A stretch of 55,656 nt of DNA from NCBI GenBank assembly GCA_003151975.1, contig PLZD01000025.1, positions 99,695 to 155,350 of the forward strand, in the 5' to 3' direction. Shown here one piece after another: positions 35,983 through 55,601 of the stretch. The notes beneath the pieces are model-generated. The model saw only the letters and a program-made list of their open reading frames with translations. It did no database searches and was not told where the DNA came from. Made by a program: the position numbers and the translations under genes. Position 1 is the first letter of the stretch; the number at the start of each line of letters is the position of its first letter. Source of the DNA: Elusimicrobiota bacterium. Lineage in GTDB: Bacteria; Elusimicrobiota; Elusimicrobia; UBA1565; UBA9628.

Positions 35983-37359
35983 CTAGCGGCTCTTGGCGCC
36001 GCGCAGAGTCTCCAACTCTCGCTCCACGTAGCGGCGCGTCTTCTCGCGCGGATGCGCCTCGAGGGCCTTCTCGAAGACCTGCTTGGCGTAAGCCGGGTTG
36101 CCCTCGCGGAGCAGGCACATGCCCAAGCCCGTGTAGGCGTCAGCCACGACGGGCTCGTTGAGCCCCAGCGACATCGCGAGCTTGAGGCCATCGGAATAAT
36201 ACTCGTGCGCCTGGGGCACGTCCTTTTTGAGCCAAGCGATGTAGCCCATCTCCTCGTAGTAGTAGACCATGCGCTGGTCGTTCTCGTTGAGCATGTCGGC
36301 GCCGAGCTGGAGCTCCTTCTTGGCGAGCAGGTAATAGCCCGCCTTGCGGTGTTCCTCGGCGAGCGCGAAGTGCGCCTCGGGAGTGTTCTCGTCGGCCCTC
36401 TTGATCTTCGGCTTGTCGCGGTTCTCGCGATATTCCTGGGGCGGCTTGGCGCCCCAGCGCACCGTCGCGCTGATGCTGTTCGTCAGGCCCAGGTCGCCGT
36501 ACGGCACGATCGCGTAGTCGATGGAGAACGCTCCGACGTTCCAGCCGAGGCCCGCCGTGATGCCCAAGCCGGCCGTATTGCGCAGGTTGAAGCCGGCGCG
36601 CAGGGCGATGGTTTTGTTGTAGATGGTCTCCGCGCCGACCGCGAAGAGGTAGCCTTGGCTGCGCTCCTTCATTATGTCGGCGGAAATCGTGTTCTCGGTA
36701 TCGCCGATCGTCATGCCGTAAGCCAGGCCCGCGCGAACGTTGGTGGGCATGCGCTCCTGGTTCTGGGAGAAGCGCACGCTGGGTCCGAGATTTTGCCCGA
36801 CGATGCCTAAGGTCAGGCGCGGGATCACGGCGATCGGATAGAGAAGCCCCGCGTCGAAGGCGTAGCCGTCGGCCGCGACTTTGTCGATGTTCTCGCTGAT
36901 GTACTTCGCTCCGACGCCCAGACTCAGCGTGTCGTAGAAGTTGTGGCCGTAGCCGAGGCCGACGGCCAGGTCGTTGGCGCCGAAGGTCCCGAGGGTCCCG
37001 TTGGGCGAGGAGATCGTCGTGCGGTCGATCTGCCCGTAGCCGACGTAATTGAGGTTGGTGCCGAAGCCTTGGCGCGTCGCGAGGCCCACATACTCATGGT
37101 TGACGCCGCCAAAGTACTGGTTGTGCATGAAGGTGGCCTCGTGCTGAGCGATGCGGCCGAGGCCGGCCGGGTTGTAGTACAGAGCGTTGGCGTCGGTCGC
37201 GAGCGCCGTGTAGGCTCCGCCCATCGCGGTGGGCCGCGCGCCTTCGTCGAGAAACAGGAAGTCGAAGGCGTCGCCGCCGGCGCGGCCCTGCTGGGCGGCG
37301 CAGGGAAGCGCCGCCGCAGAGAGGAGCGCGAAGGCCAGCGTTAGTTTCAGGGTCTTCAT
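35983..37359 (-). CDS. PorV/PorQ-family barrel protein with C-terminal TPR domain, coupled to the 6054-residue giant
   Basis: The 458-residue protein has a signal peptide (ALLSAAALPCAAQ-Q) and the PorV/PorQ signature GARPTAMGGAYTAL...DANALYYNPAGLG (about 40-67), then a beta-barrel region to about residue 310. The rest (about 325-455) is helical TPR-like repeats (HFALAEEHRKAGYYLLAKKELQLG, then VADAYTGLGMCLLREGNPAYAKQVFEKAL), absent from the other PorV-like protein at 20.5 kb. Its ATG overlaps the stop of the 6054-residue protein (ATGA, 37356-37359). By analogy with type IX secretion I infer a dedicated partner of that giant; the TPR tail would sit in the periplasm and could recruit other components such as the neighbouring TPR-SpoIID protein. 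Confidence 0.88.
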   Translation of the reverse strand: MKTLKLTLAFALLSAAALPCAAQQGRAGGDAFDFLFLDEGARPTAMGGAYTALATDANALYYNPAGLGRIAQHEATFMHNQYFGGVNHEYVGLATRQGFGTNLNYVGYGQIDRTTISSPNGTLGTFGANDLAVGLGYGHNFYDTLSLGVGAKYISENIDKVAADGYAFDAGLLYPIAVIPRLTLGIVGQNLGPSVRFSQNQERMPTNVRAGLAYGMTIGDTENTISADIMKERSQGYLFAVGAETIYNKTIALRAGFNLRNTAGLGITAGLGWNVGAFSIDYAIVPYGDLGLTNSISATVRWGAKPPQEYRENRDKPKIKRADENTPEAHFALAEEHRKAGYYLLAKKELQLGADMLNENDQRMVYYYEEMGYIAWLKKDVPQAHEYYSDGLKLAMSLGLNEPVVADAYTGLGMCLLREGNPAYAKQVFEKALEAHPREKTRRYVERELETLRGAKSR

Positions 37360-40300
37360 CTGAGAATGGCCACCTTCCTAGTCGCGGTCATGGTCCCTTG
37401 GCTGGTGATGACGACGAAATAGATGCCCGACGCGACGTCCTTGCCCATGTCGTTCTTCGCGTCCCATTGAACTTTGCCGGCGCCGGCGCCCAGCGAGTTG
37501 AAGTGGGCGACGAGCGAGCCGCTGATCGTGTAGATCTTGATCTGGTAGTCCGCGGGCAGATTGTCGATGATGATGCCCGAGTTGGGATCGGCCGCGTTGA
37601 AGGGCCGTCCCTCGTCGGAGTTGGGGCCGTTGGGCTTGAAGGGATTCGGGTAGATGCGGATGGTGCCGAGGTTGGCCGTCGGCGGAACGCCGAACGCCGA
37701 GAAGAAGCTGAAGTGGGGCGTCAGGCCGAACACCAGTTCGTTGACCGTATCGAGCGTCGTGGCCGCGTCCTGCTGCCAGTTGCCGCTGACGGCGTTGTAG
37801 CTGAAGACCTTGAGCTGGGATACCGGCACGCCCGTTGCGCCGACGGTGCCGTTCTTGTTCGGGTCCTGGTAGCTGAACGAGATCGAGCCGAGCTGACCGC
37901 CCGAGAGCATTGTCTGTCCGTTGCCCAGGAGGATCGAGACGCCGAGATTGGGCACTCCGACTCCGCCGGGAGGCGGCGCGGGAGGCCCGGGATTGGGGAC
38001 GACCGTGATCGTCGTCGAAGAGGTCGACAGCGCGCCCGCCGGGATCACGATGTTGGCGATCATCGAAGACGCCCCGTCGCCGGCCGTCACCGTATTGTCG
38101 ACGGAATTGCTGATCACCTGCCGCCTCTGGATCATCCCCCCTCCCAGGCTGATCTCGTTGACGTCCCACGCGACGGGGTCGGCGACGATCGTGATGCTGC
38201 CCAGGGCCGTATCGGTCGCGCCGGAGACGTCGTAGGCGATCGTGCGCAGGTCGTAGTTGGTCGCGGGCTGCGAGGTCAGGTCCCAGTGCACGAAGAACGG
38301 CGGCGCCAGCGACGGGTTCGGGTGCGCACCCTCGGCGGCCGGCACGAGATGCCAGACGGTGTCGGTCGTGGCCTTGTACTCGAAGAGCACCTGCGAGGTC
38401 TGCGCGGCGGTGCCGGACGTCAAATGGGCGTAGAGCGTCACGCGGTTGCCGGTGACCCTCGTGCCGGCCACGGGCGATTCCACCGCGGCGCTCACCGCCG
38501 AGAGCGTCGCCGTCGAAGCGGACGTGGCGAGCACGCTCGTGTTCGTCTCAATGATGCCGCAGTGGTTTTCCGCTCGGATCGCGAAACGGTAGGACGCCGT
38601 CGAGGGCAGCACACCGGTCGTGTAGGCGGTGGTGGGCGCCGCGATCGTGGCCAGGGGCGCGCCGTAGTTGACGGCCCCGGTGCCCGCGTCGTAGTAGAGG
38701 AAATATTGACGCACCGGCGAGGGCGAGGGACTCCAGCTCAGCGCGATCTGGTTGCCCGCGAGCGACGCCGCGACGAGCGCGCTGGGCGCCGACGGCGTAG
38801 AGCCCTGCGTGACGAAGGAGACCGTCGCGTCGAACGCCGTCGGCAAGCCGGCGAAGTTGCGGTTGCGCACGCGGTAGTAGTAAGTCGAGCATTCCAGCAG
38901 TGTCGAATCCGTCACGTTGGAGAACGCGCCCGAGAAGGCCGTCGCGTAGGTCACCGAGTCGGTCGAGCGCTGGACCTCGGCTACGGTGGCCGCGGGATTT
39001 TGATTGAGCGCCCAGCTCAGCGTCGCGCTCGTGATTTGAACGTTCGAAATCGCGGATCCCGTCGGCGGGTTCGCGTAGGTGAACGCCGAGCCCAGCGCCG
39101 TGAAGGCGCTCACGTCGGAGCCGTTGACGGCCTGGGTCCGCGCGTAATACGTCGTGTTGGGCGTGAGCGCCGGAGGCAGGCCCCCGGTTCCGAAGAGGGC
39201 CGCGAGGTTGAAGGTGCTCGAGCTAGCGTTGATGGTCCCGAAATTGTCGGTCGAGATCTGCGTCACATAGGTCGTTCCCACTCCGTTGCCGCCGCTGGTC
39301 CAATTGACCGTCATGCTGGACGTGCCGATCGTCGTGAAGCTCGTTCCCGCGACTCCCGGCCCGAGCAGCAAGGTCATCGTCGTCGGCAGGACCGTGTAGG
39401 CGGTGGACTGCCCGTTGTTGCCGATGGCCTTGGCCTGGAAGTAGTAGGTGGTGTTCGAGTTGAGTCCCGCGAATACGGCCGACAGGTTCAGCGTCACGCT
39501 CGAGGAGTTGACGGTGGCGAAATTGTCGGTCGAGATCTGCGCCGCGTAGTAGGTGCCGGCCGCATCATTGCTGGTCCAATTCGCCGTGACCATAGTCGTG
39601 CCGTCGCCGGTGGGCGCGGCCGAGATCGGCGCCGAGACGAGCGTCCAAGTCGAAGGGGCGAAAACGAAAGCCGTGGCCGCTCCGTCGTTGTTGAATGCGA
39701 GGACCTTGAAGTAATAGGTCGCGTTGGACTGCAAGCCCGTGAAGAAGGCGGAGGCGTTGAGCGTCAGGGAGGACGCGTTGACCGTCGCGAAATTATCCGT
39801 GGAAACTTGCGCGAGGTAATTCGTCCAGGCGGGATCGCCGTTGGCCCCCCAACTGATCGAGACCGACGAGAAATCGACTTGGGCCAGCGCCGGCGAGAGG
39901 GGCGCGTTGGCCAACGTAGAAGTCGCGGTGAGATTCGTGAAAGCGGTCCAGGTCGATGTATTGATGTTGAACGCCGCGGCTTGCGCGTAATACGTCGTGT
40001 TCGTGCCCAGCCCCGCGAACGCGGCGAATAAATTATAAGTCTGAGACGACATCACGATCGGATTGAGGCTCGCCATCGTCGAGATCTGCGCGTAGTACGT
40101 GGTTCCCGACGGATTGCCGTTGGCGGTCCAGTTGATCGTGAAGGAGTTGGCCAGGATCGCGGTGAAGACCGGCGCGGCGAGTCCCGGCGAGGCGGTCGGC
40201 GTGGCGGTCGAACCGTAAATTACGAAGGCTGTCGCCGTCCCCCCGCCGTTGACGGCCTGGACCCTGGCGAAATAAACGGAGTCGGCGGCCAACCCCGCGA

Positions 40301-43300
40301 ATGACGCGTTGATATTGAAAGTCTGCGAGCTCGCGGCCAGCGGATTGAAGCTCGCCATCGTGGAGATCTGCGCGAGATAGCTCGTCTGCGCAGGGTCATA
40401 GCCGGTAGCGAAAGTGCCCGATGACCAGTTCAGCGTCAAGCCGCTTCCCGTGACCGCGGTGAAGGTGGCCACGGCGGCGGCGGGAGGAGCGGCCAGCGTC
40501 ATCGTCGAGCCCAGAGCGAGGAAGGCGCTGGAGCCCGACGCGTTGGTCGCCTGCACGCGGCCGTAGTAGGTCGTGTTCGGAGTCAGGTTCGGCCCCGCTC
40601 CTCCCGCGCCGAGCGCGACGGATAGGTTGAGCGTCGAAGATGAAAGGTTGATCGTCGCGAAGTTGTCCGTCGAAATTTGGGCGTAGTAGGTCGTGCCCGC
40701 CCCGTTGCCGCCGGTGGTCCAATTCGCCGTCAGAGAGTTCGAGTTGACCGCCGTGAAGATGTTGGCCGCGGCGCCGGGAGGCAGCAGCAAGGTCACCGTC
40801 GACGGCAGGACGACGAAGGGGCCGCCTTGGCCGTTGTACGCGACGACCTGGACCTTGAAGTAGTAGGTCGTGTTGGCGTTGAGACCGGGGAACGTCGCGA
40901 AAGCGTTGATCGTCTCGCTCGCGGAGTTGACGGTCGCGAAGTTGTCTGTCGAGATGCGCGCGGAATAGACCGTCGTCGCGGGATTGCCGTTGGCAAGCCA
41001 ATTCGCCGTGATGCTCGACGAGCCCACGAAGCTTGGGTTGGCCGCGATGGGCTGCGCGTACTGCGTCCAGGTCGAAGGCACGGAGTCGAACGCCGTGCCC
41101 ACCCCGTCGCTGTTGAGCGCCTGCACCTGGACGTAGTAGGTCGAGTTCTGCACCAACCCGAAGAAGGTCGCCGAGGTGCCGAGAGTCTGCGAGGTGATGT
41201 TGACGGTCGCGAAGTTGTCGGTCGAAAGTTGAGCGGCGTAGGTCGTGTAGGCCGGATTGCCGTTGGTCCCCCAGCTCACGCTGATCGACGAGAGGTCGAC
41301 CTGGAGCAGCGCGGCGAGTATGGGCGCCTTGGCCAAGGTCGAAGTCGAGCCCAGGTTGGTGAAGGCGGTCCAGGTGGACGTGTTGATGTTGTAAGCCGCG
41401 GCCTGGGCGAAGTACGTGGTGTTGGCGCTCAAGCCCGGGAAGGCGGCGAAGAGATTGAGCGTCTGGGAGGACAACAGGATCGGAGTCAGCGTCGCCATCG
41501 TCGAGATCTGCGCGTAGTAGGTCGTTCCCGCGGGATTGCCGTTCGCGGTCCAGTTGACCTGAAGCCCGGCCGTCAAAACGGCGGTGAAGACCGGCGCCGC
41601 GGGGCTCGGCGGCGCGATCGGCGTCGTCGTCGAGCCGAGATTGACGAAGGCCGTGTTCAGCCCGAGGCCGTTGATCGCCTTGACCTCGGCGAAGTACGGC
41701 GCCTGCGGCGTCAGGCCCGAGAAGGTCGCGAAGACGTTCTCGGTCTGCGAGCTCGCCGAGAGTGGAATGAAGCTCGCCATCGTGGAAATTTGGGCGAGGT
41801 AGATGGTTTGCGCCGAGTTGTACCCCGTGACGAGCGTCCCTGACGACCAATTGATCGTGAGGCTGTTTCCGCCGACGGCCGTGAAGGTCGACACCGCGGG
41901 GCCGGGATCGGCGGCCATAGTCATCGTCAGAGGTAAGGCCGTAAAGCCGCTGGCCTGGCCTCCGAAGCCGAGCACCTCCACTTCCGTGTAATAGCTCGCG
42001 TTGGGATTGAGGCCGGAGAACAAGGCGGAGGTGTTGAGCGTCTGGCTCGTCGCGTTGACCGTGGCGAAATTGTCGGTCGAGATCGCGGTGAGATAGATCG
42101 TGCCCAGCGAGTTGCCGTTGGCGCCCCAGTTCGCGGTCATCGAGCTCAAGCCCACGGTCGTGGGCGGAGCGCTCAGCGGCGGCGAGATCAAGGTCCAGGT
42201 CGAAGGCAGCGCCGTGAACGCCGTCGCAAGCCCGTTATTGCCGATCGCCTTGGTCTTGAAGTAGTAGGTCGTGTTGGGCGCCAAACCCGAGAAGACGATC
42301 GAGGTGTTTAAGGTCTGGCTCGTCGCGTTGACCGTGGCGAAGTTGTCGGTCGAGATCTGAGCCACGAAATTGGTCAGAGCGGCGTCGGTCGTCGTCCAGT
42401 TCGCGGTGATCTGGCTGGTCGTGATGCCGGAAGGCGCGGCGGAGACCGGCGCCGAGACGACGGTCCACGTGGTGGGCGCCGCGACGAAGGCGGTGGCAGC
42501 ACCCTCGTTGTTGAGCGCGCGCACTGTGAAATAGTAGGTCGCGTTGGACTGCAGCCCCTTGAAGAACGCCGACGCGTTGAGCGTCAGGGAGGACGCGTTG
42601 ACGGTCGCGAAATTGTCGGTGGAAATCTGCGCGAAGTAGTTCGTCCAAGCGGGATCGCCGTTGGCGCCCCAGATGATCGAGACCGACGAGAAATCCACCT
42701 GTGCCAGCGCGGGCGCGAGAGGCGCGCTGGCCAAAGTCGAAGTCGCGGTCAGGTTGGTGAATGCCGTCCAGGTCGTGGTGTTGAGGTTGTAGGCCGCGGC
42801 TTGCGCGTAGTAAGTCGCGTTCGTGTTGAGGCCGACGAACGAGGCGAACAGGTTGTAGGTCTGCGACGAGACTAAAATCGGGTTGAAGCTCGCCATCGTC
42901 GAGATCTGCGCATAGTAGGTCGTGCCGGCTTGGTTTCCGTTGCTCGTCCAATTGACCGTCAAGGCGTTATTGGTAATCGCCGTAAAGACCGGGCTCGCCG
43001 CGCCGGGCGCCGCGGTGGGCGTCGAGGTCGAGCCGAAGTTGACGAACGCGGTGTTGAGGCCGAGGCCGTTGATCGCCTTGACCTGGGCGAAGTACGGCGA
43101 GTTCGGCGTTAAGCCGCCGAAGGCCACGCTCGTGTTGAATGTCTGCGAGCTCGCGGACAATGGAATAAAGCTCGCCATCGTGGAGATCTGCGCGAGATAG
43201 AACGTCTGCGCCGTGTTGTAGCCGGTGGCGAGAGTGCCCGACGACCAGTTGAGCGTCAGGGCGTTTCCTCCCACCGCCGTGAAGGTCGCGATCGCGGGCG

Positions 43301-46300: not shown

Positions 46301-49300
46301 GCGCAAGGTAGATCGTGGTCGTCGAATCATTGTTGGCCAGCCAGTTGACGGTGACGCTCGAGAGGCCGATCGTGCTCAGCGCGGCCGAGGCCGGCGGCGC
46401 GGCCAAGGTCCACGTCGATGGGAGGGCCGTGAAGCTCGTCGCCAGGTTGTTGCTGTTGACGGCCTCCACCTCGAGGAAATAGGTGTCGTTGGAGACGAGG
46501 TTGAAGAAGGTCACCGACGGGTTGAGCGTCTGGCTCGACGCGCTGACGGAGAGGAAGTTGTCCGTCGAGATCTGAGCGACGTAGATGGTCCCGACGGGGT
46601 CGCCGTTGGCGCTCCAGTTGAAGCCGACGGAGGACAAGTTGACTTGCGCCAGAGCCGGCGCGGCTGGCGCCGCGGCCAGCGACGAGGTCGAGCCGATGTT
46701 CGTGAACGCCGTCCAAGTGCTCGCGTTGAGATTGAAGGCGGCGGCCTGCAAAAAGTAGGTCGTGTTCGCGTTGAGGCCGACGAAGGTCGCGTTCAGGTTG
46801 TAGGTCTGCGACGACATCATGATGGGATTGAAGGTCGCCATCGTCGAGATCTGGGCGTAGTAAGTCGTGCCGGCCGCATTGCCGTTGGCCGTCCAGTTGG
46901 CCGTCAGTGCGTTGGCGAGGATCGCGGAGAACGCCGGGCTCGCCGCTCCGGGCTGAAGCCCCATGGTGGCCGTCGAGCCGAAGTTTGTGAACGTCGTGCT
47001 GCCGCCGCTGACGTTGGCGGCCTGGACCTCGGCGAAGTAAGGGAAGCCTTCCATGAGGCCGCCGAAGGAGGCCGAGATGTTGAAGGTCAGCGACGACGCC
47101 GCCACGGGCGCGAAATTGGCCATCGTTGAAATCTGCACGACGTACAGCGTGCTCATCGGGTTGTAGCCGGTTCCTGCGGTCCCCGAGGACCAATTTAGAG
47201 TGAAGCTGTTGATCGTGACGGCCGTGAAGGTTCCGACTCCAATGGGCGCCGCGGGTGCCGCCGCGAGCGTGACCGTCGAGACCGGCACGGCGGCGGCGAA
47301 GTTGTAGTTCGAGCCGTACAGCGCTCCCGCGCGCAAATAGTAAGTCGTGTTCGGCGCGAGGCCTTGCGGCGCGAGCTGGGTCGTCGCGGCGACCGCGGTC
47401 GCCGATGAAATCAGCCCCGCGGAGAAATCCGCGACGAGCGCCGCGTCGGCGCGGTAGCCGTCGGAGGCCACGGCGCCCCAGCTCAATGTGATGCTCGAGG
47501 AGACGACGCCCGCGACGACTGGGTTGGTCGGAGGCGGCGCGGTCTCGGAGGCCTGCGCCGTGCCGCCGTAGGAGCCTTGGTTGGCGCGGCCGCCGTTGGG
47601 GGCGGGCTCGACGGCGAAGGAGGCCTCCGTGGGATCGGCCGCGTCGATCGTCAGCGAGGTCGCGGCGTCCGCGGTGAAGCCCGCGACCGTAGGGTCGTAG
47701 CGCCCGCGCATCGAGCGCGGGTGCAAGTCTTCGGTGCTCGTGACTTGCCAGAGCGGATTGGCCGCGATCGAATGGGTGTCCTGACCGGAGCCGGCTCTCC
47801 ACCCGGCGAGGAATTGGAAGCCCGCGCCGCCCCAGACTCCCGCGTTGAGGCTGTTCGAGCTGAACCAATCGTTGTAGTCCGAGGAGAAGCCGCCTTCGCT
47901 GTCGGCCGAGACGCTGATGCTGGCCGACGAGCCCGTCACCGTCATCGAGGCCTCGAAAACGTCGTCTTTGATCACGGCGCCGGCGCAGCCGTTGGTCAAA
48001 AGCATCAGATAGGCGTTCGTGAGCGAGGTCCCCGCGGCTAGAATGTCGTTGAACTTGAATGTGGTCCCGGCCGCCCCGACGAGATCGACGCCGGTAAAGC
48101 CGCCGCCGGTCAGCAGTCCCGGCTCGATGATGCGGTCGCGGTCGAACAGCAGTCCCGCGGTGCTTTGCGCGTAGATTCCGTACGCCGTCGCCGCGCCCAT
48201 CGAGCCGGCGGTCCGGTAGACGATTGTGTTGTTCTCGATCGTCGCGCCGGAGGCCAGCCCGTTGATGTAGAGGCCGTAGGTATTGACGCCGGTCCCCACC
48301 GTCGGCACGATCGTATTCGACGTGATGAACAGTTGGGTGGTTCCGGCTTGAGTCGCCACGGAGATACCGAACTCCGCGCCAGTGAGGATCACGTTGGTCG
48401 ATAAGTAGATCGCGCCCTGGTTGCTCTTGTCGAGGTAAATGCCCGAGCCGTTGCCCCCTCCCAGGAAGACGCTCGAAGAGACGAAGAGATTGACGCTGCC
48501 CGCGTCAAGCCAGAGGGCGCTGCCCGCGGTTCCGGTCGCGGCGATCACATCGTTTCCGATGATAGTGCCCGTCGAGCCGCTGACATAGACTCCCGTCGAG
48601 CCTTGAACATACGAGTCGACCAAAGTGTTGGACGAGCTTTGAGAGACGAAGACTCCGGGGAAACCGCCGACTGCCGTGATCGTGCTGAGCGAGATCGTGT
48701 TGTACTTGGCGTTGGTGGCCAGGCGCAAGCCGTAGCCGTTGACGTTCTGCACGTAGACGCGGGAGAAGAGATTGTACGAGGCCGACTGAAGATCGACGGC
48801 CTCGTTGCTGGCGCCGGTCACGCTCGAGAAGCTGATCGTGTTGTACGTCGCGGAGTTTTGGTAGGTGACGCCGACGCCGCCGTTCGGAGCGCCGATCACG
48901 CTTTGCGTGACGGTGTTGGAGGACCCGCTGTTGAGCCAATACGCGCGCCCTCCCACGCCGCCCGCCGTGAAGGTGCTTTGGGTGATCGTGCCCCCGTTGA
49001 AGGAGACGAGCAAAGACGCGGAGCCGTTTGGATTGGCGACGACGGATTGGCTGATCGTCGTCGAAGAGGCCTGGTTGCTTGCGAGTGCGTAATAAAGCGG
49101 GGCCTGGCTGTATAGCGTGCTTTGGGTAATGTTCGTGAACGGAACATAGGCCGCCCCGTTGGCGATGTTGACCGCGTTGCCGTTGGCGCCCCCGATGTAG
49201 CATTGCGCGAAGTCGTTCATCGCTCCACCGATTGTCACGGCGTCGATATTCGCCGCGATGCTCGTCATCGTGCTCTGGAAGAATGTGTTGTCGTTGGCGC

Positions 49301-52300
49301 CCACGCTCAGCACGGCCCCGCTCGAGATGAAGCACCCGGAGACGGTATTCGACGACGAGCCATCAAAATAGAGTCCGATACCCGCGGCGCTGCCTCCGAA
49401 GGAGCTGGCCGAGATCGTGTTCGTCGAACCGGTGGCAAGCAGTCCGTAGCCCGCCTGCACCGTGACGCTCGCGCCCGAGACCATCGTCCAGCTCGAGACC
49501 GCGATTCCCGCGCCCCAAATCCTGCCCCCGCTATCGACGCTCATGCTGGTGATCGTCACGTACGCCGACGAGGCCGAGACGCCGTAGGTGACGGCATGCG
49601 TCGGGATCGCCATGAGGTGATAGAGCGTGACGCTCGTGTTCATGATTTGGAACGCCGCCGTCGAGGCGACGGGCGGGTTGATGACGGGCGCCGTGCTCAC
49701 GAAGCTCGGGTCGGCCATGATCGTGAGCTGGTAGCCGTTGTTGACGAAGCCTTGAATGGTGACTTGCTCCGTGTAGGTCTGAGTGTCCTTGATGATGACG
49801 CATTCCGTGCCGGGCATGTTGTGGTTGAGCGCGTTGACCGCGGCCATGATCGTCGTGTAGTTCTCGGTGCCGTCCTGCTTGACGTTGAAGCCGGAGCTGC
49901 AGCCGGGGGCGAGTCCTTCCGGCGAGATCGACGCCTGGGGCGTGTCGCCCGTCGAGCCCTGGTTGGCCCGCCCGTTGTTCGGAATCGGCTCGAGCGAGAA
50001 CGGCTCCGCGGGATCGGCCATATCGATCGTCGGAGAGGTGACGCCGTCGTCGACGAAGGTCTGCGAAACGGGATTCCAGCGGCCGTTGATCGACTGGGGA
50101 TGGAAATCCTCGACGCCGGCTCCCGGGTTGAACCAGAGCGGGTCGGCCGCGATGGAGTGGACGTCCTGCCCCGAGCCGGCCTGCCAGCCGCCCAGGAATT
50201 GATAGTTGGACGCTCCCCAGACGCCCGTGTTGGCGGAGTTGGGGCTGAACCAGTCGTTGTAGTCCTCGAACAAGAAGCCCTCGCTGTCGGCCGAGATGAT
50301 GATCGAAGCGGAGGAGGCGGTGACCGTCATCGAGGCGAGGAAGATGTTGTCCTTGATGACGATCGGGGTGGACCCGTTGAAGAGCCGCACGAGATAGGCG
50401 CTGGTCAGTCCCGTTCCCGTCGAGAGGACGTCGTTGAATTTGAAGGCGGAGCCGGTCGTGCCGTAGAACGAGACGGCTTCGTAGGAGCCGGCGATCAGCA
50501 TGCCCGGCATCGAGATGATGTTATGGTCCATGGCGAGGCCCGACGCGCTTTGCGCGTAAATTCCGTAAGAAATCGAACCGGGAGCGGAGACCGGCGTGCG
50601 GTAGTAGATGCCGTTGTTCTCGACTGTGGCGCCGGAGGTGAGGCCGTTGAAGTAAAGGCCGTAGCCCGGCAACGAGGGTAGGATCGTGTTGGAGGTGACG
50701 TAGATCGCAGTTCCCGCCTGCTGGGTCGCCACGCCGACGGCGAACAGCGCGCCGGGCGTCACCGTGTTCGAAGTCAGGAAGATCGCGCCCTTGTTGTTCG
50801 TCTCGAGGTTGATGCCGTACGCGGCCGCTCCTCCGCTGACGACGCTCGAGGACAAGGTCAGCCCGGAACTGGTTCCGCTCAGAGCGATGCCGCTGCCGTT
50901 TGAGTTCGTCGCCAGCAAGGTGCTGGATCCGACGACCGTGCCCGTCGACCCTCGGACCCATACTCCCGTGGAGCCCGAGACGGAGCAGTTGCTGACCGTG
51001 TTCGACAGTGAGGCGTCCAATTCAATGCCGGCGGCCGAGGCGACGATCGTGTCGCCGGCGAGCGCGTTGGCCTGCGCGCCCGCATGGAGCCAGGCGCCCC
51101 CGTTGAGGGCGCTGTCGGCGACCGTGTTGCCGGCGGCTTGCGAGAGCTCTAGGGCCCAGTTGCCGAAATTCGTCGTCATCGTGCTTTGGTTGATCACGTT
51201 GTAGCCCGCGCCCGCGCCCAGCGTGATTCCCTTGCCGTTAGCGCTCGTGTAAAAGCCGCCGACGAAGGAGTTCGAGGAGGAGTTCACGACGCTCAAGCCG
51301 GAGTAGTTGATGTCGGTGGAAAACAAGTTGAGCTGCGAGAAGGAATTGTCATTGGCCCCGTTTAGGAGGCTCACGGCGTTGCCCATCGTGTTCGACGCGG
51401 TGAAGACGGTGAAGGTGTTGTAGGTCGCGCCGTTGAGATAGGCGCCCGCGAACCCGGCGCCGCTGGCCGACGCCGTGCTGTAGGCGACGACGTCGCCGGT
51501 CCCGTCGAGATAGATGCCGTTGACTCCCTGCACCGTGACGCTGGAGTAGCTGATGGTGCTCCAGCTCGAGATCGCGATCCCGGCGGTCCCGATGCTGAAA
51601 TTGCTGTCGACGCTCATGCTGCTGATCGTCACGTTGGGAGACGAAGCCTTGACGGCGTAGGGCAACGGGATGCTGTCACGCACCGAGATGTGACCGATGG
51701 TCACGCTCGAGTTCATGATCAGGAACGCGGCGGTATGGCCCGCCGTGGGGCTGACCACGGGGGCCGAGCTGATGAAGCTGGGGTCGGAAAGAATCTCGAC
51801 CTGTAAGCCGTTGTTGGTGAAGTTTTGTATGGTGACTTGCTCGTGGTAGGTCTGCGTGTCGCGGATGACGACGCACTCGTTGCCGATGAGATTTGTGCTC
51901 AGGGCGTTGACCGCGGCTTGTATCGTCGTGAAGTCCGCCGAGCCGTCGAGCTTGACGTTGAAGCCCGAAGCGCAGCCGGGACCCAGCAGAGGGACCGACT
52001 TCGACGCTTCCGTCGTGTCGCCCGTCGAACCCTGGTTGGCGCGCCCGCCTTTGGGCGCCAGCTCCTGTCCGAACGGTTCGGACGGATCGGCCTTGTCGAT
52101 GGTCGGCGAGGTCACCGAGTCGTAGACGAAGGCGGCCGCGGTGGGATCCCACCGTCCGTTTCCCGACTCAGGGTGAAAGTCCTCGACCGAAGTCAACTGC
52201 CAGAGGGGATTGGCGGCGATGGAATTGGCGTCTTGTCCGCTGGCCGCGTTCCAGCCTGCGGGGAATTGATAGCTCGAGGCCCCCCAGATCCCGGTGTCGA

Positions 52301-55300
52301 AGCTGTTCGAGCTGAACCAATCGTTGTAGTCCGAGGAGAAGCTCCCTTCGCTGTCGGCCGACACGCTGATGGAGGCGGACGAGCCGGTCACCGTCATCGA
52401 GGCGGAGAAGATGTTGTCTTTGACGACGGTTCCCACCGAGCCGTTGGTCAGGCGCAGCAGGTACGCGTTGGTGAAAAGCGTGCCGGTCGAGTGCACGTCG
52501 TTGAACTTGAACGTGGTTTCGGTCGCGCTGGCGAGCGCGGCCGCCTCCAGGCTTCCTCCCGTCAGCGTGCCCGCGTGCGAGAAGCGGTTATGATCGATCA
52601 TCAATCCCGAGGCGCTTTGAGCGTAAAGCCCGTAGGTCGTGAATCCTGCCATCGAGCCGGACGCTCGGAAGTAGACGCTGTTGCTTTCGATCGTCGCCCC
52701 TGAGGTCAGTCCGTTCAGGTAGAGGCCGTAGGTGTTGTACGCGGCGGGCATGGTCGGCACGATCGTGTTGGATGTGATGAAGATCTGGGTCCCCGCGGAC
52801 TGGGTCGCGGCGTAGATTCCGTACTGGGCTCCGTTGACGATCGAGTTGCTCGACAGGACGATCGTTCCCGAGTTTCCAACGCCGAGATAGACCCCGGCGC
52901 CGCGCGCACCGCCGACGGCCGAGTCCGCGCTCATCGTCAGTCCCACGCTTCCGCCGGTCAGAAGCAAGCCGCTTCCCCCGACGTTTGTGCCGGTGAGCGC
53001 GCAGTTGGTGACCGAGGTTCCCGTGGAGCCGTTGACGAAGACGCCGGTCGATCCGGAAAGCGTCGAGCCGTCGATGGAGTCGAGCGAGCCCGAATAAACC
53101 ATGACCGCGGCGCCTGCGCTGTTTGTCGCGTACGAGGCACTGACCGCGGTCGCCGCAGATCCATTGAGGAAAAACGCGTATCGCGCGGCTCCCGCGACCT
53201 GCGCCGTGCTGTACGAGATCGAGTCGCTGACGCCGTCGACATAGAAGCCGTGGGCCGATTGCATCGTGACGCTGGAGTTGCTGACCGCCACCGAGCTCGA
53301 AAGGTACATGCCCGCGGTGAGGATTTTCCCCCCGCTGTCGACGTTGACGCTCGAGATGATGATGTTCGGAGAGGAAGCCGCCACTCCGTAGGGAACCGCG
53401 TTGGTTCCGAGGACCCAGACGTTTCCGATCTCCACGTTCGAATTCATGATTTGGATCGCCGCGGTGGATCCGGCCGGCGGGCTCACGACCGGCCCCGAGG
53501 TGACGAAGGTCTCGTCGGCGGCGATGATGATCGCGTTGCCGTTCATCGTGAAGCCTTGGATGGTGACCTGTTCGTGGTAGGTCTGAGTGTCCTCGATGAT
53601 GACGCACTCTTGGAAGGACAGGTTCGTGTTCAGCGAGTTGACGGCGGCTTGGATCGTGGTGTAGTCTTCGGTCCCGTCCTGCTTGACCGTCGCTCCGCCC
53701 TGGCAGCCCTGGTTCAACGGCGTATGAGAATGCGACGCCTCGGCCGTGTTGCCGTAAGAGCCCTGGTTGGCCCTGCCGCCGTTTGGCGCAGTCTCATTGA
53801 AGAAGGGGTCGCCGTTTTTGGCCGAGTCTATCGTCTGGGAGAAGGCGCCGTCATTGACGAAGGCGCCGATGGTGGGATCCCAGCGGCCTTTGCTCGAGCG
53901 CGGATGAAAATCCTCGACGCCCGTCACCTGCCACAACGGAGGGGCGCGCTTGGATTTTGGATCTTGGTTGGTGGCCGTGTTCCAACTGGGGTCCGTGAAG
54001 CTGTAGCTCGTTCCGCCCCAGTTCCCCGTGTTGTAGGCGTTGGAGCTGTACCAATCGTTGAAGTTGGACCCAAAGCCGGACTCGCTGTCGGCCGAAACGT
54101 CGATGGTCGCCGAAGATCCTGTCACCGTCATTGAGGCGTCGAAGATGTTGTTCTTGACCGAGGCGTTCGTCGAGCCGTTGGCGAGGCGCAGCAGCAGGGC
54201 GTTTACGAACAGCGTGCCGGTCGAGTGGACGTCGTTGTAGCTGAAGCTGGCGGAGTCGGAGCCGAACAACGCGACGGCCTCGTAGCTTCCGCCGGTCAGC
54301 GACCCCGACATCGAGATGCGGTTGTGGTCGATGAACATCCCGCCGCTGGCGCTCAGGGCGTAGATGCCGTAGGTCTTGAAGGCCCCCATCGAGCCGAGAC
54401 CACGGTAGTAGATGCCGTTGTTGATAATTCCCGCCCATTGGCCGTCGAAATACATTCCGTAAGTGTTGTGGGCCGTCGAAAAAGTCGGGACGATCGTGTT
54501 CGAAGTGATGACGATGTAGGCGCTCGCGGCTTGAGTCGCGGCGTAGATGCCGTATTGCGCTCCCGCAGGAATGGTGTTCGTCGAAAAGTTGATGTTGCCT
54601 GAATTGCCTTGGTCGAGGCGCGCGCCGGCTCCCTGGGGTCCTCCAATCAGAGTCGACGTCGAGACAGTCAGGCCGTCGCTGCCGCCCGCGAGCCAGAGCG
54701 CGTTGCCGACGACGTTGGTGCCGACGAAGACGCTCGCGTCGATCACCGTCGAAGTCGAGTCCGTGATCCAGAGGGCCTGCGAGCCCGAGACGTAGGAGTT
54801 GTCGATGACGACGGAAACCGACGTTGAGACCTGCATGCCGAACCCGCCCGTGTTGGTCGCCGTTGAAAGAGTGAGCGTGACCCTGGAGGCTTGGCTCATC
54901 AGTATGGCGGGCGCGACGGCGGAGTTGACGGCGACGCTGGAGTTGGCGATCAGGCTGAGGCTCGTGATCGAGACTCCGGCCTTGTTGATTTTTCCGGTCG
55001 CATCGATGATGTTGACGCCGCTGATGGTGACGTTGGTCGAAGAGGCCCAGACGCCGTAGGTCATGGCGTTGGTCGGCACGACGTAGACCGACTCGATGGT
55101 CACGCTCGTGTTGAGTATCTGGAACGCCGCTGTCGAGGCCGCGAGCGGGCTCACGATGGGAGTGTTGGCGGTTGTGATCGCGCCGATCGCGAGCTGGAAT
55201 CCGTTAGGGTTCTTGCCTTGGACGGTGACCTGCTCGGGGTAGGTCGCGCTGTCCTGAATGTCGATGCAGTAATTCCCAGCGAAGGCGCCCGCCGGCACGC

Positions 55301-55520
55301 CGTTGACGCACTGCATGATCGTCGTGCAGTCGCCGCCGCCGGCGGACTTTACGACTTTGGTGGTCGAACAGCTGATCGCCGACGCGCACGGCGCGAGCAC
55401 GGATGAGGCCGCGAGCAGCAAAAGCGCCAGAATTTTGGTAGACAGGAGTCCGGCGGAGGATCGCGCGGGGCGGTCGGTTCGCGGTGCGGATCGGAGCAAG
55501 TGCGTGTGGGACCCACGCAT
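37356..55520 (-). CDS. 6054-residue exported beta-helix/FN3 surface protein with FlgD-like C-terminal domain
   Basis: This single uninterrupted frame of 18.2 kb starts at 55520 with a long signal peptide (hydrophobic core around residues 30-45, ILALLLLAASSVLAPCASA). Four right-handed beta-helix modules follow (about 47-2665), each opening with a DGxxDYTTIQAAVNxL motif like pectin-lyase-fold proteins and closing with EPxPNGGRANQGSYG. Then come about 32 FN3 domains (2665-5680) and a beta domain with LTPHFSFF (His at 5936). The C-terminal domain runs from IRIYPNPFKPN (about 5955) to the end KVAILR. No enzyme active site is recognised. It is probably an adhesin, stalk or sheath protein exposed on the surface. 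Ser, Thr, Asn and Ala dominate. The stop is coupled to a PorV-TPR gene. Confidence 0.92.
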   Translation of the reverse strand: MRGSHTHLLRSAPRTDRPARSSAGLLSTKILALLLLAASSVLAPCASAISCSTTKVVKSAGGGDCTTIMQCVNGVPAGAFAGNYCIDIQDSATYPEQVTVQGKNPNGFQLAIGAITTANTPIVSPLAASTAAFQILNTSVTIESVYVVPTNAMTYGVWASSTNVTISGVNIIDATGKINKAGVSITSLSLIANSSVAVNSAVAPAILMSQASRVTLTLSTATNTGGFGMQVSTSVSVVIDNSYVSGSQALWITDSTSTVIDASVFVGTNVVGNALWLAGGSDGLTVSTSTLIGGPQGAGARLDQGNSGNINFSTNTIPAGAQYGIYAATQAASAYIVITSNTIVPTFSTAHNTYGMYFDGQWAGIINNGIYYRGLGSMGAFKTYGIYALSASGGMFIDHNRISMSGSLTGGSYEAVALFGSDSASFSYNDVHSTGTLFVNALLLRLANGSTNASVKNNIFDASMTVTGSSATIDVSADSESGFGSNFNDWYSSNAYNTGNWGGTSYSFTDPSWNTATNQDPKSKRAPPLWQVTGVEDFHPRSSKGRWDPTIGAFVNDGAFSQTIDSAKNGDPFFNETAPNGGRANQGSYGNTAEASHSHTPLNQGCQGGATVKQDGTEDYTTIQAAVNSLNTNLSFQECVIIEDTQTYHEQVTIQGFTMNGNAIIIAADETFVTSGPVVSPPAGSTAAIQIMNSNVEIGNVWVLGTNAVPYGVAASSPNIIISSVNVDSGGKILTAGMYLSSSVAVSNSSVTMQSAHGFYVDGVSDSISYSTAQVAGAARYAFFLNGSAATAVSASYATNSAGAAVMVYSGSLDSIDGSTLSGSTGVFVNGSTGTSVTNCALTGTNVGGSGLLLTGGSVGLTMSADSAVGGARGAGVYLGVGNSGTIVLSSNSIVNGAQYGIYAATQSAGTQIFITSNTIVPTMPAAYNTYGLYLNGLTSGATIESNSVYFRASGSMAGFTTYGLYAQSASGLMIDHNRFSHAGTLTGGSLEAAALASATETTFKFNDVHSTGTLFTNAYLLRLTNGSVGTVVKDNIFSASMTVTGSSASISVSADSEGSFSSDYNDWFSSNSFDTGIWGASSYQFPAGWNAASGQDANSIAANPLWQLTSVEDFHPESGNGRWDPTAAAFVYDSVTSPTIDKADPSEPFGQELAPKGGRANQGSTGDTTEASKSVPLLGPGCASGFNVKLDGSADFTTIQAAVNALSTNLIGNECVVIRDTQTYHEQVTIQNFTNNGLQVEILSDPSFISSAPVVSPTAGHTAAFLIMNSSVTIGHISVRDSIPLPYAVKASSPNVTISSMSVDSNFSIGTAGIAISSWSTISYSSVTVQGVNGIYLDGTGDVVAYSTASASGAGFAGAYLNGATYNTFTVFTASNTMGNAVSLLNGANDNSFSQLNLFSTDINYSGLSVVNSSSNSFVGGFYTSANGKGITLGAGAGYNVINQSTMTTNFGNWALELSQAAGNTVADSALNGGAWLHAGAQANALAGDTIVASAAGIELDASLSNTVSNCSVSGSTGVWVRGSTGTVVGSSTLLATNSNGSGIALSGTSSGLTLSSSVVSGGAAAYGINLETNNKGAIFLTSNTVTPGALFAVGVATQQAGTAIYVTSNTILPSLPGYGLYFNGLTSGATVENNGIYYRTPVSAPGSISYGIYAQSASGLAMDHNIISMPGMLIAGSYEAVSFYGTTGSAFKFNDVLSTGTGLTSAYLVRLFNGSTPIVIKDNIFLASMTVTASSASIIISADSEGFLFEDYNDWFSPNSANTGVWGASNYQFLGGWQAGSGQDVHSIAADPLWFNPGAGVEDFHPQSINGRWNPVSQTFVDDGVTSPTIDMADPAEPFSLEPIPNNGRANQGSTGDTPQASISPEGLAPGCSSGFNVKQDGTENYTTIMAAVNALNHNMPGTECVIIKDTQTYTEQVTIQGFVNNGYQLTIMADPSFVSTAPVINPPVASTAAFQIMNTSVTLYHLMAIPTHAVTYGVSASSAYVTITSMSVDSGGRIWGAGIAVSSWTMVSGASVTVQAGYGLLATGSTNTISASSFGGSAAGIGLYFDGSSSNTVSGCFISSGAVLSVGANDNTFFQSTMTSIAANIDAVTIGGAMNDFAQCYIGGANGNAVNIANGAAYVPFTNITQSTLYSQAPLYYALASNQASSTTISQSVVANPNGSASLLVSFNGGTITQSTFTAGGVGGRAYWLNSGSSNTVTQSVIGAPNGGVGVTYQNSATYNTISFSSVTGASNEAVDLQSASYNLFSRVYVQNVNGYGLRLATNAKYNTISLSTITAVGGFPGVFVSQSSSNTLVDSYVQGSTGVYVSGSTGTIIGNDVIAATGTAGSALWLDAGSVNLFVSSSVFLGGGNGSGIYLDKSNQGAIYLSTNVILTGAEFGISVATQAGTTQLFITSNTIVPTVGTGVNTYGLYINGLASGATIENNTIVYRTAGSMGAATAYGIYAQSTAGLLFDRDRIIEPGLLTGGGFTGVDLVGAAGTTFKFNDILAAGTSLTNAYLMLLTNGCAGAVIKDDVFEASMTVTGSSASISVSADSEGGFSSDYNDWFSSNSLNAGVWGGAGFQFLAGWRAGSGQDTHSIAANPLWQVTSTEDLHPRSMRGRYDPTVAGFTADAATSLTIDAADPTEASFAVEPAPNGGRANQGSYGGTAQASETAPPPTNPVVAGVVSSSITLSWGAVASDGYRADAALVADFSAGLISSATAVAATTQLAPQGLAPNTTYYLRAGALYGSNYNFAAAVPVSTVTLAAAPAAPIGVGTFTAVTINSFTLNWSSGTAGTGYNPMSTLYVVQISTMANFAPVAASSLTFNISASFGGLMEGFPYFAEVQAANVSGGSTTFTNFGSTATMGLQPGAASPAFSAILANALTANWTANGNAAGTTYYAQISTMATFNPIMMSSQTYNLNATFVGLNANTTYFLQAAAFNLNASTWTAFTNIGSTSSLAAAPAAPALAQVNLSSVGFNWSANGDPVGTIYVAQISTDNFLSVSASSQTLNPSVTFFNLVSNDTYFLEVEAVNSNNLATSFTALPSTWTLAAPPASAALSTIGLSSVTVNWLANNDSTTTIYLAQISTDGFATVNLSSQTLNLSTLFGAGGSGLNLSPNTTYYFQTKAVANGGLSTTFTSLGSTMTLAANPAPAIATFTAVAGNGLTLNWSSGSLATGYNAAQTFYLAQISTMASFIPLAASSQTFNTSVAFAGLNPNFTYFAQVLAINGTGLYTAFVNFGSTATPTAVPGAPGSSTFTAILANSFTLNWSADGNQAGTTYYAQISTMPTFVPIVLSSQTYNVFASFAGLNTNTTYYAQAAAYNLNSSTWTTFDNLTATSTLANAPSAPALAQVDFSSVSISWGANGDPAWTNYFAQISTDNFATINASSLTLNTSAFFTALQSNATYYFKVRALNNYGAATAFVAAPTTWTVVSAPIVAQPSAVGTTQITSNWATGDGAFTNYIAQVSTDNFVTVNATSQTFNTSVVFSGLVSNATYYFQAKAIGNNGLATSYTALPSTWTSIALPIAAAPTTVGLSSMTANWGPNGDTLSTIYIAQISTDNFTTVNASSQTLNAAVLFTGLNPNASYYTQVQVLGYDGRATAFVSLPSTMTLAADPAPAIATFTAVGGNALTLNWSSGTLATGYNTAQTIYLAQISTMASFNPLFASSQTLNTSAPFSGLIPNDPYFAQVKAINGLGLNTVFVNFGSTQTPTAPPGLAAPVFTAIGINSLTANWTSDGNPAGTTYYAQISTMASFNPILMSSQTYNLLATFAGLNINTTYYAQAAAYNLATTTWTAFTNLTATSTLANAPLAPALAQVDFSSVSISWGANGDPAWTNYFAQISTDNFATVNASSLTLNASAFFTALQSNATYFFKVRALNSEGAATVFVAAPTTWTVVSAPVSAAPAGITTTQIAANWTTIDAAFTNYITQISTDNFATVNATSQTFNTSVVFSGLVSNATYYFQAKAIGNNGLATSFTALPSTWTAIALPLAAAPTTVGLSSATANWGANGDAVGTIFIAQISTDNFATVNASSQTLNVTVLFPGLNPNASYYTQVQVLGYDGRATAFVSLPSTMTLAADPAPAIATFTAVGGNALTLNWSSGTLATGYNTAQTFYLAQISTMASFIPLSASSQTFNTSVAFGGLTPNSPYFAQVKAINGLGLNTAFVNFGSTSTPTAAPGAASPVFTAITNNALTVNWTSNGNQAGTTYYAQISTMASFNPILVSSQTYNLFASFVGLNTNATYYAQAAAYNLNTTTWTAFTNLTATSTLASAPLAPALAQVDFSSVSIIWGANGDPAWTNYFAQISTDNFATVNASSLTLNASAFFKGLQSNATYYFTVRALNNEGAATAFVAAPTTWTVVSAPVSAAPSGITTSQITANWTTTDAALTNFVAQISTDNFATVNATSQTLNTSIVFSGLAPNTTYYFKTKAIGNNGLATAFTALPSTWTLISPPLSAPPTTVGLSSMTANWGANGNSLGTIYLTAISTDNFATVNATSQTLNTSALFSGLNPNASYYTEVEVLGFGGQASGFTALPLTMTMAADPGPAVSTFTAVGGNSLTINWSSGTLVTGYNSAQTIYLAQISTMASFIPLSASSQTENVFATFSGLTPQAPYFAEVKAINGLGLNTAFVNLGSTTTPIAPPSPAAPVFTAVLTAGLQVNWTANGNPAGTTYYAQISTMATLTPILLSSQTLNLFAAFPGLSANTTYFAQAAAYNINTSTWTAFTNLGSTSTLAKAPILAALLQVDLSSISVSWGTNGNPAYTTYAAQLSTDNFATVNITSQTLGTSATFFGLVQNSTYYVQVQALNSDGVGTAFDSVPSTWTQYAQPIAANPSFVGSSSITANWLANGNPATTVYSARISTDNFATVNSASETINAFATFPGLNANTTYYFKVQVVAYNGQGGPFVVLPSTVTLLLPPGAAANIFTAVNSNSLTANWTTGGNGAGTTYYAQISTDNFATINLSSSTLNLSVALGAGGAGPNLTPNTTYYGRVQATNASGSSAFLALGSTMTLAAPPAAAVATFTAVTGSGLTLNWSSGTFATGYDPAQTSYLAQISTMASFNPLAASSQTFNINASFAGLAADSVYFARVQAVNGGGTATAFVIYGSTATPTASPGLAAPVFTAILANSFTINWTANGNPSGTTYYAQISTMASLNPIVMSSQTYNLFAAFAGLGTNTTYYAQAAAFNINTSTWTAFTNLTATSTLANAPLSPALAQVDFSSVSISWGANGDPAWTNYLAQVSTDNFATVNASSLTLNASAFFTGLQSNATYYFKVLAFNNDGAATAFVFAPSTWTLVSAPISAAPTGDGTTMVTANWTSNDAAGTYYAAQISTDNFATVNSSSVTLNLSAVFAGLNSNTTYYFQAKAIGNNGQSTAYTVLPTTMTLLLGPGVAGTSFTTIGTSSMTVNWTSGGNGVGTTYVTQISTDNFGTINASSSTFNLAALFGTGGLPPALTPNTTYYARTQAVNGSDVSAFTALGSAFTYANPPTGSAISNVQITSATLSWALNQNPAATVAEVQRSTDSVTYATAFSGAFSNVTDSTLLECSTYYYRVRNRNFAGLPTAFDATVSFVTQGSTPSAPSALVAASLAGNQIALSWSPSPSPVRQYFLYYDAGTGAVNYGAPLATIAAPTTAYTTGVLPSTASYRFAIRAENHCGIIETNTSVLATSASTATLSAVSAAVESPVAGTRVTGNRVTLYAHLTSGTAAQTSQVLFEYKATTDTVWHLVPAAEGAHPNPSLAPPFFVHWDLTSQPATNYDLRTIAYDVSGATDTALGSITIVADPVAWDVNEISLGGGMIQRRQVISNSVDNTVTAGDGASSMIANIVIPAGALSTSSTTITVVPNPGPPAPPPGGVGVPNLGVSILLGNGQTMLSGGQLGSISFSYQDPNKNGTVGATGVPVSQLKVFSYNAVSGNWQQDAATTLDTVNELVFGLTPHFSFFSAFGVPPTANLGTIRIYPNPFKPNGPNSDEGRPFNAADPNSGIIIDNLPADYQIKIYTISGSLVAHFNSLGAGAGKVQWDAKNDMGKDVASGIYFVVITSQGTMTATRKVAILR
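39073..46115 (-). repeat. Five-copy 1.4-kb tandem repeat of FN3 quintets
   Basis: Within the giant gene, groups of five different FN3 domains repeat in the same order. A marker (reverse complement of the coding for LAQISTMASF) occurs at 40350, 41772, 43170, 44568 and 45969, so the spacings are 1422, 1398, 1398 and 1401 bases (474, 466, 466, 467 codons). The quintet types can be told by their openings: xDPAPAIATFTAV, APVFTAI, ALAQVDFSSVSISW, SAPVSAAP and APTTVGLSS. The central copies are closest to each other and the outer ones more diverged, as expected from unequal recombination. Confidence 0.85.
47530..49899 (-). repeat. Beta-helix module 4 of the giant protein
   Basis: Opens with VKQDGTENYTTIMAAVNAL, closes with GGRANQGSYGGTAQAS just before the first FN3 domain. 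About 790 residues, the longest copy, with many extra turns such as STTISQSVV and NTISLSTIT. Confidence 0.75.
49900..51979 (-). repeat. Beta-helix module 3 of the giant protein
   Basis: Opens with VKLDGSADFTTIQAAVNAL, closes with GRANQGSTGDTPQAS. About 690 residues, longer than modules 1 and 2 because of additional helix turns in the middle (NTFTVFTASNT and ANALAGDTIV region). Confidence 0.75.
51980..53706 (-). repeat. Beta-helix module 2 of the giant protein
   Basis: Opens with VKQDGTEDYTTIQAAVNSL and TYHEQVTIQGF, closes with GGRANQGSTGDTTEAS. About 575 residues. The opening resembles the start of pectinesterase/pectin-lyase-fold domains. Confidence 0.75.
53707..55380 (-). repeat. Beta-helix module 1 of the giant protein
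   Basis: First and shortest of four homologous modules (about 560 residues). It begins with GDCTTIMQCVNG and YPEQVTVQG, continues with many short turns of the VTISGVNI and SNTIVPT kind, and ends with GGRANQGSYGNTAEAS. Its opening is the most diverged, with extra cysteines. Confidence 0.75.
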
Positions 55521-55555: not shown

Positions 55556-55601
55556 TGACAATTTGGTTACAGACTATATAAGAGGAAGGGGCCGGGAAAA
55601 A

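What the first reader, a model, noticed from the sequence alone, without database searches (positions are those of the whole stretch)
37356..55520. A 6054-residue beta-helix plus FN3 surface protein
An 18.2-kb single frame encodes four pectin-lyase-like modules, about 32 FN3 domains and a C-terminal sorting-type domain. The combination of four full beta-helix modules at the tip with a very long FN3 stalk suggests a long fibre presenting a glycan- or surface-binding head. The protein would occupy a large fraction of the secretion capacity of a small cell.
Basis: partly seen in the sequence, partly recalled or inferred. Interest (0 to 1): 0.7.

Follow-up and report, generated by a model that had tools for sequence, protein, structure and literature searches.

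The report
Giant fibre with its own exporter
A 6,054-residue surface fibre of an uncultured Elusimicrobiota bacterium ends in a type IX secretion tag and is translationally coupled to its own PorV-like outer-membrane carrier, one of about 15 such cargo-carrier pairs in the genome, in a phylum outside the one to which this secretion system is said to be restricted.

Summary
It is unlikely to be an assembly artefact: the longest exact repeat is 56 bp. The more telling fact lies just outside the finding. The stop codon overlaps (ATGA) the start of P0003, a PorV/PorQ-family 14-strand barrel with a C-terminal TPR domain. A second giant in the window (P0002) has the same arrangement. In this genome 15 of 17 CTD proteins found sit next to a PorV-family gene, 11 with the exact ATGA overlap, and CTD and PorV sequences co-diverge (Mantel r=0.65 within one genome). 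The pairing recurs across Elusimicrobiota and in some other phyla. A divergent SprA/Sov-like translocon occurs in 130 of 150 Elusimicrobiota genomes sampled; no PorU-type sortase was found in six. Best reading: a SprB-like giant adhesin exported by a SprA-like translocon and held on the surface by its dedicated PorV-like shuttle. This resembles SprB-SprF, but with type A signals and PorV-family carriers outside Bacteroidota. Export, anchoring and adhesion are inferred.

The parts
37356..55520 (-). Giant cargo gene P0001, 6054 aa: signal peptide-like N-terminus, 4 beta-helix modules, 32 FN3, Ig-like region, T9SS type A CTD
55371..55520 (-). N-terminal ~50 aa with hydrophobic signal-peptide-like stretch (STKILALLLLAASSVLAPCASA)
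   Evidence: read from the translation; no signal-peptide program was available
53721..55370 (-). beta-helix module 1 (aa 51-600)
   Evidence: 50% identical to module 2
51990..53720 (-). beta-helix module 2 (aa 601-1177)
   Evidence: AlphaFold model is a right-handed beta-helix, mean pLDDT 75; last ~125 aa not modelled confidently
49917..51989 (-). beta-helix module 3 (aa 1178-1868)
47556..49916 (-). beta-helix module 4 (aa 1869-2655)
38511..47546 (-). 32 tandem FN3 domains (aa 2659-~5670), with 466-aa superunits of five domains
37671..38510 (-). Ig-like and pre-CTD region (aa 5671-5950)
   Evidence: by eye; no family match claimed
37359..37670 (-). C-terminal T9SS type A sorting domain (aa 5951-6054), ends ...KVAILR
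   Evidence: TIGR04183 25.4 bits, cut-off 23; own CTD HMM 97 bits for this stretch (a seed member); profile of 14 CTDs matches the PorZ chain 5m11 at 9e-14
37356..37359 (-). ATGA overlap: stop of the cargo gene and start of its PorV-like gene
   Evidence: same overlap in 11 of 15 pairs of this genome
35983..37359 (-). P0003, PorV/PorQ-family outer-membrane barrel with C-terminal TPR domain (458 aa), proposed dedicated shuttle/anchor
   Evidence: NF033709 163.5 bits, cut-off 90; AlphaFold mean pLDDT 84, 14 strands at aa 73-302 and TPR helices from ~327; best PDB fold matches are PorV 8gl6_F and 6h3i_F
21504..27665 (-). Second CTD cargo in the window, P0002 (2053 aa, Kelch + FN3 + CTD)
20524..21507 (-). 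PorV-family partner of P0002, same ATGA overlap
   Evidence: (143 bits, over cut-off)

Best explanation
P0001 is a giant surface adhesin exported by a type IX-like system of Elusimicrobiota. Sec takes it to the periplasm (inferred from the N-terminus). Its CTD is recognised at a SprA-like outer-membrane translocon. P0003, made from the same transcript by coupled translation (inferred from the ATGA overlap), collects it by the CTD. Because no PorU-type sortase was found, P0003 probably remains its membrane anchor, with the TPR domain facing the periplasm. The 32 FN3 domains would form a stalk holding the beta-helix head away from the cell to bind polysaccharide or another surface. Shown here: the domains, the CTD, PorV-family membership and predicted fold, the gene coupling, its genome-wide and phylum-wide repetition, the co-divergence of CTD and PorV, and the SprA-like gene. 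Inferred: export, one-to-one specificity, non-covalent anchoring, the role of the head.
For: CTD over the curated TIGR04183 cut-off and similar to the solved PorZ and PorU chains. P0003 is PorV/PorQ family, a predicted 14-strand barrel, top fold match T9SS PorV. 15 of 17 CTD proteins found in this genome are adjacent to a PorV gene, 11 with exact ATGA overlap. CTD places with a PorV directly downstream: 10/13, 18/25 and 13/17 in three relatives, one a complete chromosome; about 0.3-0.4% expected by chance. In loci fetched by PorV similarity, 34 of 40 Elusimicrobiota loci and 24 of 37 from other or unnamed lineages have a CTD cargo just upstream. CTD and PorV distances correlate: r=0.65, p=1e-4 for 14 paralogous pairs of one genome; r=0.885 for 78 pairs (partly species relatedness). 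A SprA homologue (160.9 bits to TIGR04189; PDB SprA 4.7e-24; hhalign probability 100 over 1243 columns) is present in 130 of 150 Elusimicrobiota genomes. No Peptidase_C25 in six Elusimicrobiota genomes, while a KSB1 genome gave strong hits. Precedent: SprB needs and is anchored by SprF, encoded directly downstream (PMC9143113, PMC12618676).
Against: No expression, localisation or binding data. The SprA and PorV homologues fall below the curated equivalog cut-offs (160.9 of 200; 74.6 of 250), so function may have shifted. Two CTD proteins of this genome, including the largest, have no PorV next door, and a few PorVs have no CTD, so pairing is a strong tendency rather than a rule. Co-divergence is also expected if each pair simply duplicates as a unit. 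GldM was not found, but the search was silent in every genome, SprA-positive ones included, so the energy source is unknown. An unknown sortase could still cut the CTD.
Confidence: 0.72

Rival explanations
1. P0001 is a secreted or released polysaccharide-active enzyme: the beta-helix modules cleave or epimerise glycans, the FN3 stretch is a spacer, and the CTD is only a secretion tag that is later removed.
For: Predicted module resembles beta-helix glycan enzymes such as lacto-N-biosidase, AlgE4, alginate and fucoidan lyases. Pfam Pectinesterase is a weak hit in one relative's beta-helix cargo.
Against: Matches are generic for the right-handed beta-helix fold (TM-scores mostly 0.15-0.4, identity about 10%); no catalytic family is assigned by Pfam or NCBIfam; 32 FN3 and a membrane-coupled partner fit a tethered fibre better; relatives keep the FN3 part and CTD while the head changes.
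Confidence: 0.15
2. P0003 and its paralogues are FadL-like uptake channels that import products or ligands captured by the adjacent surface protein, not secretion shuttles.
For: PorV belongs to the FadL-like fold class, and FadL and TodX structures are also matched.
Against: Sequence and fold are closest to T9SS PorV; the neighbour is a CTD protein whatever its other domains (beta-helix, Kelch, FN3); CTD and PorV co-diverge; the SprA partner of PorV is present.
Confidence: 0.08
3. Carriers are interchangeable: cargo and PorV genes are neighbours only because they spread as duplicated cassettes, and any PorV paralogue can carry any CTD.
For: Co-duplication alone gives correlated trees; two CTD proteins here lack a neighbouring PorV; in F. 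johnsoniae one shuttle serves three orphan cargoes (PMC12618676).
Against: The exact ATGA overlap is kept in 11 of 15 widely diverged pairs, pairing persists across the phylum, and about 15-20 PorV paralogues are retained where Bacteroidota use one PorV for all type A CTDs (PMC12618676).
Confidence: 0.17

Closest known systems
SprB-SprF cargo-shuttle pairs of Flavobacterium johnsoniae (T9SS type B CTD with PorP/SprF)
   Same: Giant repetitive surface adhesin (SprB 669 kDa), cognate FadL-type 14-strand barrel encoded directly downstream, several paralogous pairs per genome, shuttle doubles as surface anchor (PMC9143113, PMC12618676)
   Different: Here the CTD is type A and the partner is PorV/PorQ family with, in this case, a C-terminal TPR domain; the host is Elusimicrobiota; no gliding is known
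T9SS type A cargo with PorV, PorU and A-LPS (Porphyromonas gingivalis gingipains)
   Same: TIGR04183-type CTD, PorV-family barrel, SprA/Sov-type translocon
   Different: In Bacteroidota one PorV serves all type A CTDs (PMC12618676) and PorU cuts the CTD; here about one PorV per cargo, and no C25 sortase found
PorV/PorQ family (NF033709) and UPF0164
   Same: P0003 scores 163.5 bits, cut-off 90
   Different: PorV and PorQ equivalog cut-offs not reached; carries TPR repeats
Huge proteins (>5000 aa) of Elusimicrobiota
   Same: PMC11573180 already names Elusimicrobiota as enriched in huge proteins
   Different: The passages read give no secretion route for them; this work proposes one

Membership tests
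T9SS type A substrate | C-terminal TIGR04183 sorting domain at the very end of the protein | tested here: met
   25.4 bits, cut-off 23; P0002 reaches 20.4, below cut-off
T9SS type A substrate | N-terminal Sec signal peptide | tested here: inconclusive
   hydrophobic stretch and AxA site read by eye; no predictor available
T9SS type A substrate | SprA/Sov translocon in the same genome | tested here: met
   clear homologue, though 160.9 bits is below the equivalog cut-off of 200
T9SS type A substrate | PorU (Peptidase_C25) sortase that removes the CTD | tested here: not met
   no hit in six Elusimicrobiota genomes; KSB1 control rings
T9SS type A substrate | GldL/GldM (PorL/PorM) motor | tested here: inconclusive
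   TIGR03517 silent in all genomes including SprA-positive ones; GldL not searched
T9SS type A substrate | attachment to anionic LPS | not testable with these tools
   needs biochemistry
PorV/PorQ family (NF033709), for P0003 | score over the family cut-off | tested here: met
   163.5 against 90
PorV/PorQ family (NF033709), for P0003 | 14-strand FadL-like barrel like solved PorV | tested here: met
   predicted model only
PorV proper (NF033710 equivalog), for P0003 | score over the equivalog cut-off | tested here: not met
   74.6 against 250
SprB-SprF type B pair | type B CTD (TIGR04131) | tested here: not met
   not among NCBIfam hits at E<=0.001
SprB-SprF type B pair | cognate shuttle gene directly downstream | tested here: met
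   ATGA overlap, but the partner is PorV family, not PorP/SprF
SprB-SprF type B pair | role in gliding | not testable with these tools
   no culture; motor-like cluster noted only in passing

The most novel reading that the evidence does not exclude
Elusimicrobiota run a separate branch of the type IX system in which nearly every surface giant has a private PorV-family carrier-anchor and at least one giant is driven by a non-flagellar FliG-MotA-MotB rotary motor encoded beside its PorV, making a gliding or adhesin-moving machine that evolved in parallel with Bacteroidota gliding.
Probability: 0.2. Interest if true: 0.9.

Novelty: new variant of a known kind. Interest (0 to 1): 0.68.

Why it matters
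A 2025 paper still calls the T9SS exclusive to Bacteroidota (PMC12618676). A SprA-like gene in 130 of 150 Elusimicrobiota genomes, with PorV-family proteins and type A-like CTD cargoes in each of the four genomes where both were counted, would move the origin and range of the system well outside that phylum. One carrier per type A cargo, in place of one for all, makes the question of how CTDs choose shuttles directly testable, with dozens of natural cognate pairs. It also offers a secretion route for the huge proteins already counted but unexplained in this phylum.

Tried and rejected
LPXTG-type sorting: no motif. Tandem-repeat or assembly artefact: TRF empty, longest exact repeat 56 bp. P0003 as a single query in genome contigs found nothing; an alignment of relatives worked. 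SprA_N PF14349 gave nothing anywhere; the full-length TIGR04189 model did. Single-sequence PDB search with the SprA-like protein failed; the alignment succeeded. GldM search uninformative. FliF-like ring homology of the FliG-domain protein was suspected from memory, but no database hit supported it. A first module self-BLAST returned nothing; module-by-module BLAST worked. The same-size orthologue test gave only partial matches.

Full report
OBSERVATION. The frame exists exactly at 37356-55520, on the minus strand: 6054 codons, ATG start, no internal stop. Its N-terminus has a signal-peptide-like hydrophobic stretch. Aa 51-2655 are four modules 40-50% identical to each other that match Pfam Beta_helix. 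Aa 2659-5572 hold 31 FN3 repeats by a repeat-specific HMM, and Pfam adds one at ~5577-5656. The last 104 aa are a T9SS type A sorting domain (TIGR04183, 25.4 bits, cut-off 23). FN3 domains form 466-aa superunits 57-87% identical; the longest exact DNA repeat in the gene is 56 bp, so short reads could resolve it.

SURROUNDINGS. The stop codon overlaps by four bases (ATGA) the start of P0003 (35983-37359). P0003 belongs to the PorV/PorQ family (163.5 bits, cut-off 90). Its AlphaFold model (mean pLDDT 84) has 14 strands followed by TPR helices, and the best fold matches in the PDB are the PorV chains of T9SS translocon complexes. A second giant in the same window, P0002 (Kelch, FN3, CTD), is followed by a second PorV-family gene with the same overlap. 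A tRNA-Gly(CCC) gene lies just upstream of P0001, straddling the window edge.

THE PATTERN. In the window's genome (4.64 Mb, 68 contigs, 96% complete) a CTD search found 16 places and the PorV family model 23 matches, several of them pieces of one gene. Fetching and tiling these regions gave 17 CTD proteins, one of them weak (C39). Fifteen, the weak one included, have a PorV-family gene immediately adjacent on the same strand. Eleven of these 15 pairs share the exact ATGA overlap and one more has TAATG. Cargo precedes PorV except in one pair (L041). Unpaired are a 14,133-aa giant on C43 and a 601-aa protein on C17.

RELATIVES. All 57 genomes searched (own genome, family, order, class) encode homologues of P0003, from 2 to 30 places each. 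Of 29 P0003 homologues in relatives, 26 have a detectable CTD just upstream. In three relatives, one a complete chromosome, 10 of 13, 18 of 25 and 13 of 17 CTD places have a PorV directly downstream, against about 0.3-0.4% by chance. A scan of named genomes places the host among Elusimicrobiota: contig lengths in two relatives, G008 and G027, equal those of Elusimicrobia bacterium GWA2_66_18 and NC_groundwater_1678. Of the loci so fetched, 34 of 40 Elusimicrobiota and 24 of 37 others (Stahlbacteria/WOR-3, Hydrogenedentota, Gemmatimonadales, Ignavibacteria and others) have a CTD cargo upstream. This scan was seeded with P0003-like PorVs and is not an unbiased census.

CO-DIVERGENCE. Distances between CTDs and distances between PorVs agree among 14 paralogous pairs within the genome (Mantel r=0.646, p=1e-4; r=0.631 without the closest pair) and among 78 pairs overall (r=0.885, where species relatedness contributes). 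The P0001 CTD is closest in this genome to that of C26 (55% identical), whose PorV is also closest to P0003 (about 47%). Co-duplication explains this as well as co-adaptation does.

TRANSLOCON. A SprA/Sov homologue of 1878 aa lies on contig C26. It scores 160.9 bits against TIGR04189 (equivalog cut-off 200); its family profile matches solved SprA at 4.7e-24 and aligns to SprA of Ignavibacteria, KSB1 and Calditrichota with probability 100 over 1243 columns. It is found in 130 of 150 sampled Elusimicrobiota genomes, mostly as a single copy; all 20 genomes without it belong to one family and many are reduced. No Peptidase_C25 sortase was found in six Elusimicrobiota genomes although a KSB1 control gave strong hits. 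A GldM search was uninformative because it found nothing anywhere.

MECHANISM. The nearest understood system is SprB-SprF: a 669-kDa adhesin whose cognate barrel, encoded next door, exports and anchors it (PMC9143113, PMC12618676). I infer that P0003 does the same for P0001, with a type A CTD and a PorV-family barrel in place of type B and PorP/SprF. The TPR domain of P0003 could dock to periplasmic or wall components, as PorE's TPR region is proposed to do (PMC9143113); this is speculation. The beta-helix head resembles glycan-active beta-helices and tailspikes only generically, so its ligand is unknown.

CONSERVATION OF THE FIBRE. Among cargoes upstream of P0003-like PorVs, FN3 domains and the CTD recur while the head changes: L199 (G035) has 5888 aa with FN3 throughout the half scanned; L099 has a similar beta-helix plus FN3; L167 has Kelch, beta-helix and FN3. 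The architecture is thus a modular member of a family, not a unique protein.

PRIOR KNOWLEDGE. Enrichment of huge proteins in Elusimicrobiota is published (PMC11573180). I found no paper in the held open-access library that ties PorV or T9SS to Elusimicrobiota; the library is incomplete. A 2025 paper states that the T9SS is exclusive to Bacteroidota (PMC12618676); another puts it in the Fibrobacteres-Bacteroidetes-Chlorobi group (PMC11205867, abstract).

VERDICT. The interest lies in the dedicated type A cargo-PorV pairs and the phylum-wide SprA-like gene. I call it a new variant of a known kind and do not file it as a canonical T9SS, because the PorU sortase was tested and not found and the homologues fall below equivalog cut-offs.

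Noticed in passing
L208 (G000:C32) 7163-13691, L056:10933-12531; also L209, L210, L211, L212: A conserved cluster in at least five of the six genomes: PorV-family barrel (no CTD partner adjacent in four of them), FliG-domain protein with two TM segments and TPRs, a long Pro-rich/coiled-coil protein, MotA, MotB and a lipoprotein. It holds the only FliG_C match in the window's genome. It could be a non-flagellar rotary motor for this secretion or adhesin system.
   Followed up: partly
L059+L214+L047 (G000:C43): A 14,133-aa CTD protein without an adjacent PorV. Proteins with the same C-terminal ending in G035 (at least 8219 aa) and G047 (at least 8046 aa) lie beside the PorV/FliG/MotAB cluster, so its partner may be the PorV on C32.
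   Followed up: partly
L194:3-6458 (G047:C28): Cargo, CTD and PorV barrel are in one open frame with a signal-peptide-like stretch between them: either a natural fusion or a lost or misread stop codon.
   Followed up: partly
L041:8569-12440; apparently G008:C8, G047:C8, G057:C1:991060-994745: A pair type with reversed order (PorV first, then CTD cargo) that seems conserved in relatives; adjacency in relatives judged from coordinates only.
   Followed up: partly
L187 (G057 = CP096137.1, about 3209000-3213500): The SprA-like frame is split into several ORFs in the complete genome, perhaps long-read indel errors.
   Followed up: no
20 SprA-negative genomes: All Elusimicrobiota genomes without a SprA-like match belong to one family (f15), many under 1.4 Mb, which suggests loss during genome reduction.
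   Followed up: no
window 55600-55656, minus strand: 3' part of a tRNA-Gly(CCC) gene that crosses the window edge just upstream of the giant gene.
   Followed up: yes
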